Shown here: positions 1,760 through 7,667 of the stretch, in pieces
Position numbering within the stretch: the stretch's first letter is position 1
Layout of the letters: each line of letters starts with the position of its first letter
DNA from: Anaerolineales bacterium
Lineage (GTDB): Bacteria > Chloroflexota > Anaerolineae > Anaerolineales > UBA4823
Assembly: GCA_022865865.1 (NCBI GenBank)
Contig: JALHTN010000204.1
Coordinates: forward strand, 1 to 8,035
Direction: 5' to 3'
DNA: 8,035 bases
Program-made: the position numbers and the translations under genes
Notes under the pieces: generated by a model
Database searches by the model: none
What the model saw: the letters and a program-made list of their open reading frames with translations, nothing else
What the model was told of the DNA's origin: nothing

Positions 1760-1780
1760 CCTTAAACCCTTAACAAAATA

Positions 1781-1852
1781 TGGGCCCGGTAGGATTCGAA
1801 CCTACGACCAAACGGTTATGAGCCGTCCGCTCTGCCGCTGAGCTACGGGCCC
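1781..1852 (-). tRNA. tRNA with CAU anticodon, probably tRNA-Ile2 (lysidine-modified)
   Basis: A 72-nt cloverleaf folds completely by eye on the minus strand. It has acceptor stem GGGCCCG/CGGGCCC, D-stem GCTC/GAGC, anticodon stem GACGG/CCGTT with loop CTCATAA, T-stem GTAGG/CCTAC with loop TTCGAAT, and discriminator A73. The anticodon CAU is at 1818-1820. It is not the initiator: position 1 pairs with 72, and the anticodon stem lacks the three G-C pairs. C4-G69 and C5-G68 are present; these are pairs reported as recognition elements for the lysidine synthetase TilS in E. coli tRNA-Ile2. The variable region TGGTC and the rest of the body also resemble bacterial Ile2 more than elongator Met. The Ile2 call is inference; elongator tRNA-Met is the alternative. 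The 3' CCA is not encoded (A73 is followed by TATTTTG), so it must be added enzymatically. Confidence 0.96.
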
Positions 1853-1892
1853 CTATATTTATACAAGGCCAATCTGGGTAAAATTCACACTA

Positions 1893-1921
1893 ATTTTATA
1901 CCAAAAATGGACTACGAGCAA
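1893..1921 (-). promoter_or_regulatory. Candidate promoter for the tRNA gene
   Basis: On the minus strand, TTGCTC (1916-1921) is followed after 17 nt by TAAAAT (1893-1898, 5 of 6 to TATAAT). A TGG just upstream of an overlapping TATAAA could act as an extended -10. It lies about 40 nt before the mature tRNA 5' end, leaving a short leader for RNase P to remove. A second TATAAA sits immediately before the tRNA (1859-1864 region) but has no matching -35. Motif evidence only. Confidence 0.4.
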
Positions 1922-1941
1922 GGAAAGCACTCTTCCGGACC

Positions 1942-1959
1942 ATTATTTCATAAAATAAT
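1942..1959. repeat. AT-rich perfect inverted repeat
   Basis: ATTATTT (1942-1948) and AAATAAT (1953-1959) form a 7-bp perfect inverted repeat around a 4-nt CATA centre. It lies between the tRNA promoter candidate and the structured RNA region. It could be a protein-binding site or an UP-like AT-rich element, or simply chance in an AT-rich gap. It has no G-C content to act as a terminator. Confidence 0.3.
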
Positions 1960-2000
1960 AGTAACAATCAGGATAAAAAAACGTTTATTTATACAGAAAC

Positions 2001-2138
2001 GCCTGTCCCTTGAAGTGGTCGAATGAATAACCAATCCCACATCTGCGATAACTTGGTTGTATTCGATCTTCAAAGCAGGTTCTCCCGTGATAAGGGGCAG
2101 AACATACCGGTCCTAGAAATGACCGGTTTCCTTTATTT
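2001..2138 (+). ncRNA. Structured RNA: small RNA or leader of the glycan operon, no family recognised
   Basis: Four helices nest in order around an 18-nt loop (2035-2052): CCTG 2002-2005 with CAGG 2076-2079; TTGAAG 2010-2015 with CTTCAA 2068-2073; TCGAAT 2019-2024 with ATTCGA 2061-2066; AACCAA 2029-2034 with TTGGTT 2053-2058. That makes 22 base pairs separated by small asymmetric internal loops. A second hairpin follows, TTCTCCC 2080-2086 with GGGG.AGAA 2095-2102 and one bulged C (2098). Then comes a terminator-like hairpin at 2106-2127. The terminator tract exists only on the plus strand, which sets the direction. The apical loop TCTGC (2042-2046) could alternatively pair with GCAGA (2097-2101), a possible pseudoknot or switch. 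I checked it against remembered features of T-box, GEMM c-di-GMP, SRP and 6S RNAs and none fits clearly. The 5' end is unknown, as no convincing promoter is visible. It stands 38 nt before the first operon gene, so a cis-acting leader is as likely as a free small RNA. Confidence 0.5.
2106..2138 (+). terminator. Rho-independent terminator-like hairpin upstream of the glycan operon
   Basis: ACCGGTC (2106-2112) pairs perfectly with GACCGGT (2121-2127) around an 8-nt loop, followed by TTCCTTTATTT. The 7-bp stem has five G-C pairs; the U-tract is interrupted. The minus strand has no T-rich run after the stem, so it acts in the plus direction. No plus-strand coding gene lies upstream in the gap, so it either ends a small RNA or works as an attenuator of the downstream operon. 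Confidence 0.6.
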
Positions 2139-2165
2139 GGCTGAGCATTAGTATTATTTTATAGG
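2137..2165 (+). promoter_or_regulatory. Weak candidate promoter between terminator and first operon gene
   Basis: TTGGCT (2137-2142) and TATAGG (2160-2165) are 17 nt apart. Both match the consensus only partly (4 of 6 each). Initiation would fall near 2172, only a few bases before the ATG at 2177, giving an almost leaderless message. If this is not a promoter, the operon must be read through the terminator from further upstream. Confidence 0.25.
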
Positions 2166-2176
2166 TATTGTCCGAG

Positions 2177-3595
2177 ATGATAACCAGATCCAAAATGTTA
2201 ATTCGAATGTCTAGTCTCCGGATACCAAGATGGTTAATTGAGATAACTATATTGGTAATAATTATTGTAATCGCTGCCGGATTACGTTTTTACAAGTTGG
2301 GAGAATGGAGCTTCTGGGGAGATGAGGCATTTACATTAGGTGCAAAGGAAGATGGTTTCAATTACAGTTTTTTACGTCGATCATTGGCAACCGACCTAAT
2401 CCGTTTAACAACGGCTTATCTCGGGGTCAGTGAATGGAACGCCCGGTTGGTCCCAGCCCTGATCGGTATTCTAACCATCCCCCTAACTTACTATCCGACG
2501 CGCAGAATGTTCGGTACCGGGACAGCGCTCCTCGCAGCCATATTTCTTGCGATCTCCCCGTGGCATTTGTACTGGTCGCAAAATGCCCGTTTTTACATTC
2601 TATTGCTTTTGTTCTACAGCATGGGGTTGCTGGCTTTTCATATCGCAATGGAGGAGGATCGCCCCTGGCTGCTGGTAGGATCCCTACTCCTATTTGGATT
2701 CGCAGCTCGGGAGCGGTTGATCGCCCTGTTCTTTGTTCCGGTTATCGGGGTCTACCTGGTACTGATATGGCTGCTGCCCTTCGAAAAACCCAAAGGCTTT
2801 CGGCCGCGAAACCTGGTTTTGATTATTGCACCGGCTGCCATTGCAGGTATCTTTTTCGCTGGCCCCTACTTGGCGAACCTGGGAGCCTGGTTTGGCGGGT
2901 TTGGCCGCATCAACACCAATCCCTTCTGGATGTTGGCAGGTACGGTGTACTACATTGGTTTACCGATCGTGATTATCGCTGCTTTCGGGTTCTTGTATTG
3001 GTTTAGTCGAAAAAACCGTGGCGTTCTCTTGTTTGGCTTAAACGCTTTCTTACCGCTGGCTGCGATTGTAGTATTATCCACTTTCCATTATGCCGCAAAT
3101 CGCTATGTGTTTATCACCTTAACCAGTTGGCTGCTGCTGGCAGCGCTAGCTATACGTGAGCTCTTCAGGAACATTGAAGGATTGGGACGCATTCTGGCAT
3201 TTGGAGCTCTTATGCTGGTTATTCTGGTTTCTTTCAGCGAAGATATCTTATATTTTCAATACCAGAATGGCAATCGTGATAACTGGAAGGCAGCCATGCA
3301 TTATATCGAAACGCAACGCCAGGACGGTGACATCGTCGTCTCCTCCAACACCGATATTAGCGATTATTACTTAGATGAACAAACTAAATCTCTTTACAAT
3401 TGGGAGCCACCTCTTTTCAACGGACACAATCGGGTGTGGATTATTGAAGATATGAATGTTGCTGAACTTCAGCCGCAAATGCTTTCGTGGATTAAAGAGA
3501 ATACTCGAGAACAAGCAAGATTTGATGTACATGTTCAAGCGCGCAACTTCAAAATGCGAGTTTACTTATTCGATCCTGTGAATATAAACCAATAA
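2177..3595 (+). CDS. Polytopic GT-C glycosyltransferase (GT39/ArnT-like)
   Basis: A 472-residue integral membrane protein of the dolichyl/undecaprenyl-phosphate sugar transferase type. TM1 (about 20-36) is followed by the short outer loop RFYKLGEWSFWGDEAFTLG. Its Asp-Glu (48-49) is the expected catalytic acidic pair. The conserved SPWHLYWSQNARFY block (127-140) precedes TM segments that run to about residue 353. The last 110 residues form a soluble tail starting near DNWKAAMHYI. Known relatives move a sugar from a polyprenyl-phosphate carrier to lipid, glycan or protein on the outer membrane face; the acceptor here is unknown. The usual HPPLYY motif after the first loop is not seen. The start is uncertain: ATG 2177 is chosen (AGG 11 nt upstream), while TTG 2168, ATG 2195 and ATG 2207 are alternatives and none has a good ribosome binding site. 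It is first in the operon, 21 nt before the fused GT2 gene. Confidence 0.85.
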   Translation: MITRSKMLIRMSSLRIPRWLIEITILVIIIVIAAGLRFYKLGEWSFWGDEAFTLGAKEDGFNYSFLRRSLATDLIRLTTAYLGVSEWNARLVPALIGILTIPLTYYPTRRMFGTGTALLAAIFLAISPWHLYWSQNARFYILLLLFYSMGLLAFHIAMEEDRPWLLVGSLLLFGFAARERLIALFFVPVIGVYLVLIWLLPFEKPKGFRPRNLVLIIAPAAIAGIFFAGPYLANLGAWFGGFGRINTNPFWMLAGTVYYIGLPIVIIAAFGFLYWFSRKNRGVLLFGLNAFLPLAAIVVLSTFHYAANRYVFITLTSWLLLAALAIRELFRNIEGLGRILAFGALMLVILVSFSEDILYFQYQNGNRDNWKAAMHYIETQRQDGDIVVSSNTDISDYYLDEQTKSLYNWEPPLFNGHNRVWIIEDMNVAELQPQMLSWIKENTREQARFDVHVQARNFKMRVYLFDPVNINQ

Positions 3596-3605
3596 TATGT
3601 GCATC

Positions 3606-3610
3606 GAGGA
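3606..3610 (+). promoter_or_regulatory. Ribosome binding site deciding the start of the fused GT2 gene
   Basis: GAGGA lies 6 nt before ATG 3617. It overlaps the extra codons that would follow an in-frame GTG at 3599, so the ATG is the better start. Confidence 0.75.
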
Positions 3611-3616
3611 AAATAT

Positions 3617-6355
3617 ATGAATCAGAATCGACAACCACAAAAGGAGAAACTCCCTTTCCAGGTCAAGCTGGCAGGAGCAATCCCGGGTTTAAAAGCATCG
3701 CTGTTGCGTGTGTCTATCCTCATTGGATTCCTCGCCTTGGTTTACTACTTTAGTTGGTGGTTAATTGACGATCGTTTGCAATCGCCCTGGATTGTAATAC
3801 TGTTTGTCTTTGCCGCTCTATATGCAGGAACCCAACTCGTCGGCAACTGGATGCTGTATTTATTTGTTCACCCGCCGATCAAAGCCTTACCATGGCCTGA
3901 GAGGTTAACAATTGATGTGTTTGTGACTGTCTGCAATGAATCACACGATCTGGTGGAGCGGACTCTCTCGGCGGCTAGCACCATGAAAGGCGAGCATCGA
4001 ACTTGGTTGCTGGACGACGGGCACGAACCGGCGCTAGCAGTCATGGCTAACCGCCTCGGGGCGGGCTATTTGACCCGTGAAGGCCACAAGAACGCCAAAG
4101 CCGGCAATATCAATGCCGCACTGGAACAGACAATTGGCGATATTGTAGTGATTTTTGATATCGATCATGTGCCCGAGATGGATTTTCTTGAGCGCAGTCT
4201 AGGGTATTTTGCTGATCCAGAGATAGGTTTCGTCCAAGTCATGTTAACCTTCAATAATGAAAAGGATAGCTGGGTAGCAGAAGGAGCGATCGAGACCAGC
4301 CTGGAGTTTTATAATCCCACTTCCCTCGGGGCGGATGGCATCGGAGGCGCAACTCTGATGGGCAGCAACGCATTAATCCGCCGCTCCGCCTTGAGGTCGA
4401 TCGGTGGCTATCAACCCGGTCTGGCTGAGGATCTGGCAACTTCCATCACGCTACATGCAGCCGGATGGAAAAGTTCTTACATCGCCGAACCATTGGCTCC
4501 AGGGATTGCTCCTCCGAGTTTTTCTGCTTGGTTTATACAGCAGTTGAAGTGGGCGCGCGGCGTTTTCGAATTGCTGTTGACCGCTTACCCGCGCCTCTTC
4601 TTGAGACTTTCTTGGGGACAGCGCCTTTCTTACTCTGTGCGCATGACCAAATATTGGATTGGACCGGTAGTGGCTGGCCACCTGTTTGCCACAATAGGAA
4701 TACTGATCTTCGCTGGACCTGAACTTAGATATTCCTTCCATGATTACTTGATCCATATCACCCCACTTGCCATTGCGGATGTGCTGATCCGACATCTCGC
4801 CTTCCGCTTCTACCGGCACCATAGCTCACCAAAGACTTCATTGGCACGAGCCGTCGCGCTCGTGTACAGCACCTGGCCAATTTACATGCTTTCCTGGGGC
4901 ATGGCGTTGCTTCGTATACCCTTAGATTTCCGGCCTACACCAAAGAGCAAAGGTGGCAAGCTCAACCCACTGTGGTTACTGCCACAAGCTGTTACGCTGA
5001 TCCTCCTGACTCTGGGAACAACTTATTCAGTGTTTGTGAAAGGTCACCCATTATCAATTTTACTGGCTTTTGCCATCCTACAGGGAAGCTTGCAGATGAT
5101 CTTTTTGGTCAGATGGCTTTATTCAAATGAGACATTTGAATTTAATCGCAGCCAGAAAAATTTCGCTGATCCAGTTGCCGTACTGGATCTAGACTTTGTC
5201 AATCTACCTGATGAAATCGGTGGTTCCAATGAACAGAAGCAAGCATTGGCCTTAATTCGTTACAAGCACAGACCAGTCGGTCAAGTTCAGCTAAATTTAA
5301 ATGGGAGAAGCATGAATAGGGATAGGTTGGAGAGAATTATCCTTAATTCAGTAGAATTCCCTTTTTGGCAAGCCTGGCTGGAAGATGAGTTGGAATTGGA
5401 TAGCAGGCCCAAGACCGATATCCAGAAAGAAAAAATAACAATCGCTATTTGCACCCGCGACCGGCCGGAGGATTTAAAGCGCTGTTTGGAGGAAATCACC
5501 TGTATGCCCGAAGATGGGCAGGAAGTACTTGTGATTGATAGCTGCTCCCTGAGTCCAGAAACGAAATATATCACCCAAAGCTTCTCACAAGTACGCTACG
5601 TATATGAGAATTACCCAGGCCTAAATAGAGCTCGCAACCGAGCGTTAATGGAAGCTTCCCATGACATCATCGCCTTCATTGACGATGATGCCATTCCTGA
5701 TTCAGACTGGTTAAGAGCACTGTTACCTAATTTTAGCGATCCCCGGGTTCTGTGTGTGACTGGATTAACCATGCCCCTAGAGCTAGATACAGCAGCCCAG
5801 CAATGGTTTGAGCGTTATTCTCCCTTCAACCGCGGTTTCACTCGCAAAGTCTATGATAAGAATAATCTCCACCACCTTGCTGCTGGTCGCGTGGGTGCTG
5901 GAGTCAATATGGCTCTGCGAAGAAGCGTACTCGACCTGATTGGGCCATTCGATGAAGTTCTTGATGCTGGGACACCAACCCTTTCTGGGGGAGATACAGA
6001 ATTGTTTTACCGCATAATAGCCAATGGGTTTCAGATCGTTTATGAACCTGCAGCTCTCTCCTGGCACCGCCATCGCAGAACCTGGGAAGAATTACGCCAT
6101 GTGCTGTATGGCTATGGGGTCGGCACTTACGCATACTGGACAGGCAAGCTTGTCCAGGAAAATGAGTGGGGAGTATTTTATGCAGCTGGAAATTGGTTCT
6201 TTGGGTACCAACTCCCAGCGCTATTTAAATCCTTCCTGCATTTTCCAAACAGCACACCCATAGATTTGCTGGTCAATGAATTGCGCGGTTGTCTTTCGGG
6301 TCCCCGCGCATATTACCTATCACGAAGAGAAAATGAGTTAGTAAGCATTGATTAA
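3617..6355 (+). CDS. Fused double glycosyltransferase: cellulose-synthase-like membrane GT2 plus C-terminal GT2
   Basis: A 912-residue protein. After two N-terminal TM helices (about 28-48 and 57-84) comes a processive-type GT2 domain resembling BcsA. Its landmarks are VCNES (105-109), LLDDG (131-135), FDIDH (180-184, the DxD metal/nucleotide site), GSNALIRR (249-256), AED (270-272, the general-base motif, usually TED) and QQLKW (308-312, in place of QxxRW). Five or so TM helices follow (about 349-500). No PilZ c-di-GMP domain follows them. A small linker domain (about 516-590) leads to a second, soluble GT2 domain with AICTRDRP (610-617), FIDDDAIP (687-694), a GAGVN acceptor segment (761-765), GGDTELF (791-797) and SWHRHRR (815-821). 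Both domains look catalytically intact. Likely function is sequential sugar addition from nucleotide sugars, with the first domain perhaps coupling synthesis to membrane transfer; product and donors are unknown. Start is ATG 3617, with GAGGA 6 nt upstream. It overlaps the next gene by 8 nt. Confidence 0.88.
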   Translation: MNQNRQPQKEKLPFQVKLAGAIPGLKASLLRVSILIGFLALVYYFSWWLIDDRLQSPWIVILFVFAALYAGTQLVGNWMLYLFVHPPIKALPWPERLTIDVFVTVCNESHDLVERTLSAASTMKGEHRTWLLDDGHEPALAVMANRLGAGYLTREGHKNAKAGNINAALEQTIGDIVVIFDIDHVPEMDFLERSLGYFADPEIGFVQVMLTFNNEKDSWVAEGAIETSLEFYNPTSLGADGIGGATLMGSNALIRRSALRSIGGYQPGLAEDLATSITLHAAGWKSSYIAEPLAPGIAPPSFSAWFIQQLKWARGVFELLLTAYPRLFLRLSWGQRLSYSVRMTKYWIGPVVAGHLFATIGILIFAGPELRYSFHDYLIHITPLAIADVLIRHLAFRFYRHHSSPKTSLARAVALVYSTWPIYMLSWGMALLRIPLDFRPTPKSKGGKLNPLWLLPQAVTLILLTLGTTYSVFVKGHPLSILLAFAILQGSLQMIFLVRWLYSNETFEFNRSQKNFADPVAVLDLDFVNLPDEIGGSNEQKQALALIRYKHRPVGQVQLNLNGRSMNRDRLERIILNSVEFPFWQAWLEDELELDSRPKTDIQKEKITIAICTRDRPEDLKRCLEEITCMPEDGQEVLVIDSCSLSPETKYITQSFSQVRYVYENYPGLNRARNRALMEASHDIIAFIDDDAIPDSDWLRALLPNFSDPRVLCVTGLTMPLELDTAAQQWFERYSPFNRGFTRKVYDKNNLHHLAAGRVGAGVNMALRRSVLDLIGPFDEVLDAGTPTLSGGDTELFYRIIANGFQIVYEPAALSWHRHRRTWEELRHVLYGYGVGTYAYWTGKLVQENEWGVFYAAGNWFFGYQLPALFKSFLHFPNSTPIDLLVNELRGCLSGPRAYYLSRRENELVSID

Positions 6356-7667
6356 AGCACAGTTATCCTCCAATTCACCAATTGCGAGCGTGGTAATTCC
6401 AACTCATAATCGAAGCAACCTTCTTGAAAAAGTTCTTACTGCTCTCACACAACAAACCATCTCACCTGATGATTTTGAGGTTGTTGTGGTCGCCGATGGC
6501 TGCACAGATAATACAGCTGATATTGTTGAGTTGTTCAAGGAAACGCTCCAAATTATCTTGATTGAACAATCGGGTCAAGGTCAAGCAATGGCGCGCAATG
6601 TTGGCGCAAAGGAAACCAGTGGAAATCTGCTGGTTTTCCTTGATGATGATATTGAACCCCAACCCCTATTCTTAGCAGCTCATATCAGATCCCATTCGGG
6701 AAGTGGGCGCACAGTAGTGATTGGCTATTACCCACCATTGCTCAAAACCCAGACCGGGTACTTTCGCTCAGAACTACTCGAATGGTGGGAAATTACTTTT
6801 CAGAATATGCGCCTTCCAGGTTATCGATTTAGCTATACCGATTTGGTGAGTGGAAATTTCTCTCTACACCCCGAATTATTCGACGAAGTAGGCAGGTTCG
6901 ACACTAGCTTCCGTTGCCACGAAGATTATGAATTAGGTATCCGTCTGCTTCAAGCAGGTGCTGAGTTTGTTCACTCGATCGAAGCTATTGGGTATCATCA
7001 TGAACGTAGTGAATTACACCAGGCTCTTAAGCGAAAGTATGACGAAGGGGTTGCTGATGTTCAGATTGGAAGGCTCTACCCATTCTTGAGATCTACATTG
7101 CTGATGGACAAATTACAAAAACACTCTCTGCCACCAAGCCGTGTGTTTAAAATACTTGCCTTTCATTGGCCAATAATTGGTGATTTGATTGCAGATTTTA
7201 TTAGAAAGCAAATGGATTTTTTTGAGCGAATCCGGTGGTATATGATGTGGCTGCGATTATTGAATGGTTTGATGGGATACTGGTACTGGCGTGGTGTTTC
7301 AACCGAATTACCCAATCTTACAAAAGTGAGAAACTTTTTGAATGATCCAGCTGCTCATAGTGAATCAAGATTGGTTGTCGATATTAACCTGGCAAAGGGG
7401 ATCGCCAAATCGGAGTTGATCCTTGACGAATATCGCCCCGATGAGGTCCGGTTGAGCATTAACCAGGCTGAGATCGGTCGGATCCCTTACAGTCCTGGAA
7501 ACGAGCGGGTGCGTGGCGCTCATCTGCGACCGTACCTGGTAAATAACTTAAGTTTGGAGTTGGTAAAGGCGTTTGCAGAAGATCCATCTTTTCCATATCC
7601 AGAGATTTCTGCGGAATTAGTGGCTAAATGCGAGGAATCACTGAAACTCAAGAAAAAGTGGTCATAA
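6348..7667 (+). CDS. GT2-family glycosyltransferase with small C-terminal domain
   Basis: A 439-residue protein beginning with a GT-A fold GT2 domain. Visible landmarks are SVVIPTHNR (14-22), VADGCTDNT (48-56), FLDDDIEP (97-104, DxD metal site), LVSGNFSLHPELFDEVGRFD (166-185) and HEDYELGIR (191-199, catalytic acid/base region). Weakly hydrophobic helices near 266-312 may associate with the membrane. The C-terminus (about 338-412) resembles the linker domain of the preceding protein. The start is TTG 6348: a stop codon lies two codons upstream and no other usual start precedes the first beta strand. No strong ribosome binding site is present, and the first 8 nt overlap the end of the fused GT2 gene, so translation is probably coupled. 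The expected role is cytoplasmic transfer of a sugar from a nucleotide donor to the growing glycan or lipid; substrate is unknown. The last 40 nt overlap the next gene. Confidence 0.88.
   Translation: MIKAQLSSNSPIASVVIPTHNRSNLLEKVLTALTQQTISPDDFEVVVVADGCTDNTADIVELFKETLQIILIEQSGQGQAMARNVGAKETSGNLLVFLDDDIEPQPLFLAAHIRSHSGSGRTVVIGYYPPLLKTQTGYFRSELLEWWEITFQNMRLPGYRFSYTDLVSGNFSLHPELFDEVGRFDTSFRCHEDYELGIRLLQAGAEFVHSIEAIGYHHERSELHQALKRKYDEGVADVQIGRLYPFLRSTLLMDKLQKHSLPPSRVFKILAFHWPIIGDLIADFIRKQMDFFERIRWYMMWLRLLNGLMGYWYWRGVSTELPNLTKVRNFLNDPAAHSESRLVVDINLAKGIAKSELILDEYRPDEVRLSINQAEIGRIPYSPGNERVRGAHLRPYLVNNLSLELVKAFAEDPSFPYPEISAELVAKCEESLKLKKKWS

What the first reader, a model, noticed from the sequence alone, without database searches (positions are those of the whole stretch)
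2002..2102. Long nested RNA hairpin with no recognised family in front of a glycan operon
Four perfectly complementary helices (4, 6, 6 and 6 bp) occur in nested order over 78 nt, followed at once by a bulged 7-bp hairpin and then a terminator-like stem. This is hard to explain by chance in a non-coding gap. It may be an undescribed small RNA or a riboswitch-like leader sensing a metabolite, nucleotide signal or sugar.
Basis: partly seen in the sequence, partly recalled or inferred. Interest (0 to 1): 0.75.

Follow-up and report, generated by a model that had tools for sequence, protein, structure and literature searches.

The report
Lone strong hairpin before glycan genes
A real and unusually stable hairpin, followed by two smaller ones, sits in a gap before sugar-transfer genes of a Chloroflexota-like bacterium, but no convincing relative of it was found, so whether it is a working RNA or only a DNA palindrome stays open.

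Summary
At 2002-2079 four Watson-Crick helices (4, 6, 6, 6 bp) nest, followed by a bulged 7-bp hairpin (2080-2102) and a terminator-like stem (2106-2127). The hairpin (-26.2 kcal/mol) is matched by 0 of 1000 dinucleotide shuffles (z -4.4). But 15 of 5603 80-nt windows of 14 related loci are as extreme, about one per 11 kb: notable, not extraordinary. No Rfam family matches. Single-sequence covariance models and blastn gave no convincing relative in the genomes sampled, nor in 23 related GT39 loci. One weak lead, L053, folds into a nested hairpin but gets no support from the model. Covariation, the key test, therefore cannot be counted. Against a riboswitch: no antiterminator fold is seen, and the gap is not conserved before related genes. 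A flanking inverted repeat (18 of 22) and equal stability on both strands leave a MITE-like palindrome open. Best guess: a short, lineage-limited non-coding transcript ending at the 2106-2138 terminator.

The parts
2002..2079 (+). main hairpin: four nested Watson-Crick helices (4, 6, 6, 6 bp) with an 18-nt apical loop
   Evidence: MFE -26.2 for 2001-2080, z -4.4, 0 of 1000 shuffles
2080..2102 (+). second hairpin, 4+3 bp with one bulged base
   Evidence: pair probability 0.75-0.80; competes with the pairing 2089-2097/2129-2137 (0.11-0.18), which wins in the best folds of 2002-2150 and 1980-2160
2106..2138 (+). intrinsic-terminator-like stem (7 bp, 8-nt loop) and U-rich tail
   Evidence: 1 found in 1850-2200 (+ strand), 0.3 expected from shuffles; pair probability 0.87-1.0
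1950..1971 (.). left arm of the flanking inverted repeat (18 of 22 complementary to 2141-2162), TA near the outer end
2141..2162 (.). right arm of the flanking inverted repeat
1781..1852 (-). divergent tRNA gene, anticodon CAU (called tRNA-Met)
2177..3595 (+). GT39-type (PMT_2) glycosyltransferase, first gene of the operon; ATG 2177 is where the 99%-identical database protein P0001 begins (the ORF listing starts at TTG 2168)
3599..6355 (+). protein with two GT2 domains
6348..7667 (+). GT2 glycosyltransferase

Best explanation
A short non-coding transcript, about 137 nt (roughly 2002-2138), with a long 5' hairpin, a small middle hairpin and an intrinsic terminator, made between a divergent tRNA gene and a glycosyltransferase operon. 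It would be a lineage-limited small RNA, or a short leader that mostly ends before the operon. Shown: the fold, its strength, the terminator-like stem, the lack of a Pfam or Rfam match. Inferred: that it is transcribed, where it starts, and that it acts as an RNA.
For: Order hairpin-hairpin-terminator, with the U-rich tail found on the + strand only. Prefix folds from 2002 form each hairpin in turn, and the main hairpin then stays. Hairpin z -4.4. No coding signal and no Rfam family.
Against: No sigma-70-like promoter on the + strand in 1850-2200 by the scan; a looser listing gives at best 9 of 12 matches with a 15-nt spacer at 1858-1884, far upstream. The opposite strand folds as well or better. 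No convincing relative in the genomes sampled. Windows this extreme occur about once per 11 kb in related DNA. The second hairpin is replaced by another pairing in some best folds.
Confidence: 0.4

Rival explanations
1. A palindromic DNA element: a miniature inverted-repeat (MITE-like) insertion of about 213 bp with ends at 1950 and 2162, whose inner hairpins are DNA palindromes and whose terminator is incidental.
For: Flanking arms 18 of 22 complementary; in 1000 dinucleotide shuffles of the flanks 2 reach that at length 22, 10 at 16, 16 at 20, 14 at 24, 12 at 28 and 93 at 12; 0 of 300 mononucleotide shuffles. 1945-2167 folds far better than 200 shuffles as DNA (z -4.63) and as RNA (z -3.86). 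Both strands are equally stable (-61.4 and -62.6). TA near both outer ends.
Against: No second copy in the window: blastn of 1945-2167 against it gives, outside the gap, only matches of 9-17 nt. No exact match of one 22-mer in the 84 loci held, no match in phage or plasmid records, none convincing in the genomes sampled. The arms are A+T-rich, which favours chance pairing. No clear target duplication beyond TA.
Confidence: 0.24
2. An ordinary terminator beside a chance or decaying palindrome, with no function of the hairpin itself.
For: 15 of 5603 natural windows are at least as extreme; 6 of 300 shuffled gaps hold an equally stable stretch; upstream stretches of other GT39 loci hold windows of z -4.4 (L005) and -4.2 (L010) by 30 shuffles; no conservation detected.
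Against: z -4.4 against shuffles of the hairpin itself; three hairpins in series and a flanking repeat would be several coincidences.
Confidence: 0.24
3. A riboswitch or attenuator leader that senses a ligand and controls the glycosyltransferase operon.
For: The element lies 39-175 nt before ATG 2177; a terminator-like stem lies between hairpin and gene; in 1945-2167 the best fold closes all hairpins into one junction.
Against: Forbidding the terminator leaves its arms unpaired at a cost of 11.1 kcal/mol, with no antiterminator. No model match before the GT39 genes of L001-L012 or at the further GT39 matches L066, L072 and L074; L008 and L066 hold only a short upstream stretch. No Rfam match.
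Confidence: 0.12

Closest known systems
Bacterial small RNAs with a 5' stem-loop and an intrinsic terminator (general class, from general knowledge)
   Same: size, order of hairpins, terminator-like 3' end, place in a gap between genes
   Different: no promoter evidence, no transcript, no convincing relatives, both strands fold equally
Miniature inverted-repeat elements (MITEs; features recalled)
   Same: about 213 bp, imperfect terminal inverted repeat with TA near the outer ends, strongly self-complementary on both strands
   Different: no second copy found in what could be searched, no source transposase known, no clear target duplication
Metabolite riboswitch or attenuator leaders (as a class)
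   Same: structured gap plus terminator-like stem in front of an operon
   Different: no Rfam family matched, no antiterminator fold, not found before related genes

Membership tests
Any Rfam 15 family (4227 models) | covariance-model match | tested here: not met
   apart from the tRNA at 1781-1852 only Plastid-ycf2 on the tRNA's antisense, TMV_UPD-PK1 at 4971-4992 and mir-1729 at 2123-2170, all below their gathering scores
Riboswitch / transcription attenuator | two mutually exclusive folds, one with and one without the terminator | tested here: not met
   without the terminator its arms stay unpaired, 11.1 kcal/mol worse; thermodynamic test only, no ligand. A competing pairing of 2089-2097 with the U-rich tail exists but keeps the terminator stem
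Riboswitch / transcription attenuator | conserved aptamer in front of related genes | tested here: not met
   no match in the related GT39 loci; the nearest is only 53% identical in GT39, so close kin are untested
Small RNA gene | intrinsic terminator | tested here: met
   consensus match 2106-2127 plus U-rich tail; a consensus is not proof
Small RNA gene | promoter and transcript | tested here: inconclusive
   no + strand sigma-70-like promoter in 1850-2200; no RNA data on hand
Small RNA gene | covariation among homologues | not testable with these tools
   no convincing homologue found; no whole genome held for the window; metagenome scans capped at 0
MITE | terminal inverted repeats | tested here: inconclusive
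   18 of 22; 2-16 of 1000 shuffles for lengths 16-28, 93 of 1000 for 12; A+T-rich
MITE | several copies in the genome | not testable with these tools
   no whole genome is held for the window; none other in the 8-kb window

The most novel reading that the evidence does not exclude
The stretch 1950-2162 is one folded RNA, a five-way junction closed by the flanking repeat and holding four hairpins, that belongs to an undescribed regulatory RNA family restricted to uncultured Chloroflexota-like bacteria and controls a surface-glycan operon.
Probability: 0.08. Interest if true: 0.6.

Novelty: new member of a known kind. Interest (0 to 1): 0.22.

Why it matters
If it is transcribed and conserved in close kin, it would be a new non-coding RNA in a phylum where, as far as I recall, few are described, next to a glycan operon. 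As it stands it is one strong hairpin in one sequence, and it mainly shows how such single-sequence findings compare with the natural background of strong hairpins.

Tried and rejected
Matches read and judged chance: blastn hits of 16-35 nt in sampled genomes (L051-L064). Ten of the 14 were folded; nine show nothing like the nested hairpin, while L053 does fold into a nested hairpin (outer CCCCT-type, middle GTCGAA/TTCGAC, inner AATCAGT/ACTGATT pairs) with 84% identity over a 31-nt stretch. It lies beside a sigma-factor-like gene (label recalled from its translation); its z is -2.9 for 1445-1536 (5 of 500 shuffles) and -1.5 for 1455-1534 (35 of 500), and model R2 without filters gives it no match at that place at E <= 10 (best of the 14 loci is L052, 11.5 bits, E 0.79). 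I keep L053 as an unproven lead. L054, L055, L057 and L058 were seen only as short alignments and. Model R1 hits L067, L068 and L075-L077 match the second hairpin or terminator with little or nothing of the main hairpin; a second R1 match in L076 (minus strand, 19.1 bits) was listed but its alignment not shown; L069/L070 look like one dehydrogenase coding stretch in two genomes (label recalled). R2 hit L078 breaks several pairs. Six viral contigs with AACCAA...TTGGTTGTATTCG: no R2 match at E <= 10. Coding relic: no Pfam hit in six frames, no candidate for the 42-aa ORF. Known families such as 6S, SRP, T-box and lysine riboswitch: considered from memory, no Rfam hit. Defence role: no PADLOC hit for the five window proteins. 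Papers: three searches, listings with the opening lines of abstracts only, no paper opened; nothing on this element seen there. L011 has its own long hairpin before GT39, which does not resemble this one.

Full report
Setting. The window carries a DUF1254/DUF1214 protein gene on the minus strand, a divergent tRNA gene with anticodon CAU (1781-1852, minus), a gap, and then a glycan operon on the plus strand: GT39 (PMT_2), a protein with two GT2 domains, a GT2 protein and a further frame open at the window end. Among the 120 best of 986 relatives of GT39, those with an organism name are Chloroflexota, Anaerolineae, Ardenticatenaceae or Caldilineaceae. No whole genome is held for the window. The closest GT39 in the genome collection is 53% identical, while P0002-P0009, 69-89% identical, are known here only as proteins whose DNA could not be fetched.

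The structure. The fold of 2001-2080 is -26.2 kcal/mol; 0 of 1000 dinucleotide shuffles reach it (z -4.43). On a 40-base grid over the 8-kb window it has the best z of 199 windows (-4.66; next -2.87). Scanning the whole gap is less extreme: 6 of 300 shuffled gaps hold an equally stable 80-nt stretch. The longer piece 1980-2160 has z -2.35 on the plus strand (4 of 200 shuffles as good) and -3.30 on the minus strand (0 of 200).

Natural background. In 14 related loci (L001-L014), 15 of 5603 scored 80-nt windows (5621 drawn, 18 dropped for N or a missing base) have z <= -4.4, and 59 have z <= -3; one long palindrome can count more than once, as in L013 at two neighbouring positions. That is roughly one per 11 kb on a 30-base grid of one strand, while the window's hairpin was scored in its best register, so the background is if anything understated. 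The windows were not sorted into coding and non-coding. The finding is not explained by base composition, but hairpins of this grade are normal residents of such genomes, which weakens the phrase 'hard to explain by chance'.

Fold along the transcript. Prefix folds from 2002 form the main hairpin by 2080, the second hairpin by 2104 and the terminator stem by 2128, and the main hairpin stays. One part is not fixed: 2089-2097 can pair with the U-rich tail 2129-2137, replacing the second hairpin but keeping the terminator stem; this is the best fold for 2002-2150 and for 1980-2160, and has probability 0.11-0.18 in 2002-2167. Forbidding the terminator costs 11.1 kcal/mol and leaves its arms unpaired; forbidding the main hairpin's inner helices costs 20.6. 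No antiterminator is seen, so this is not the pattern of a two-state attenuator, although a thermodynamic test cannot exclude ligand effects.

A flanking inverted repeat. Arms 1950-1971 and 2141-2162 are complementary at 18 of 22 positions. In 1000 dinucleotide shuffles of the flanks, 2 reach this at length 22, 10 at 16, 16 at 20, 14 at 24, 12 at 28 and 93 at 12. With these arms 1945-2167 folds into one closed junction with four hairpins (-62.2, z -3.86 as RNA; z -4.63 as DNA). The minus strand folds as well (-62.6 against -61.4). In general a dedicated RNA often shows a better sense strand, a DNA palindrome does not (general knowledge). This supports the mobile-element rival, and the outer ends carry TA; but the arms are A+T-rich, there is no second copy in the window, and the genome cannot be searched.

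Relatives. No Rfam family matches the gap or the four related loci scanned. blastn of the RNA gave matches of 16-35 nt in 6 of 12 genomes behind named loci at E <= 1 and of 18-24 nt in 6 of 396 genomes of the class at E <= 0.05. One of them, L053, folds into a nested hairpin of the same general plan, but its inner helix differs, its z is -2.9 or -1.5 depending on the ends, and the model does not pick it up; it is an unproven lead. A longer query found nothing in 38 genomes of one family at E <= 0.01 and in 10 of one order at E <= 0.05. Model R1 (137 nt) gave 4 of 396 class genomes at E <= 0.5 and 3 of 400 order genomes at E <= 0.3, judged chance after reading the alignments. Model R2 (main hairpin) gave 1 of 38 family genomes at E <= 0.5, judged chance, and 0 of 380 phylum genomes at E <= 0.05. 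These samples overlap. Searches over more than 40 genomes used stricter filters, and there was no positive control in a relative, so empty answers show only that the element is not widely conserved in a recognisable form, not that close kin lack it.

Of 30 GT39 loci compared by tblastn at E <= 1e-20 (L001-L030), L001, L007 and L011 carry GT39 - double GT2 - GT2 in order. R1 found nothing in 23 related loci except a 12-bit match in L010, and blastn of 1900-2160 against the 50 loci then held gave only 13-28-nt matches. Strong local folds do occur upstream of other GT39 genes (best z -4.4 in L005 and -4.2 in L010, 11 loci, 30 shuffles each), but they differ in sequence and shape; L011 has a different long hairpin. 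The element is therefore not a general part of such operons.

Verdict. The hairpin series is real. The most likely reading, at about 0.4, is a short lineage-limited non-coding transcript that ends at the 2106-2138 terminator. A MITE-like palindrome and a chance hairpin beside an ordinary terminator each have about 0.24, and a riboswitch about 0.12. Without DNA from close relatives or RNA data it cannot be decided.

Noticed in passing
window 1950-1971 and 2141-2162: Imperfect inverted repeat (18 of 22) that encloses all the hairpins, with TA near the outer ends.
   Followed up: partly
L053 1440-1540: Nested hairpin with a 31-nt stretch 84% identical to window 2049-2079, in front of a sigma-factor-like gene on the other strand; not supported by model R2.
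   Followed up: partly
L011 about 5830-5910: Another, different long hairpin (GATAGGGGAATTAA...TTTAATCCCCTATC) in front of a related GT39 gene; local z -3.0 by 30 shuffles, but z -0.73 for the 186-nt stretch.
   Followed up: partly
L010 9702-9787: Very strong palindrome with GCGGATC-like repeats on both arms, z -8.2 in the background scan.
   Followed up: no
window 1907-2026 and 2023-2151: Two small plus-strand ORFs of 39 and 42 aa overlap at ATGA inside the hairpin; the protein search gave no candidate for the second, the first was not searched on its own.
   Followed up: partly
window 1780-1852: Weak match of the plastid ycf2 leader family lies on the antisense of the tRNA gene, below its gathering score.
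   Followed up: no
window 3599-6355: One protein with two GT2 domains; the order GT39 - double GT2 - GT2 also occurs in L001, L007 and L011, the double protein appearing as two tblastn pieces in L007 and L011.
   Followed up: partly
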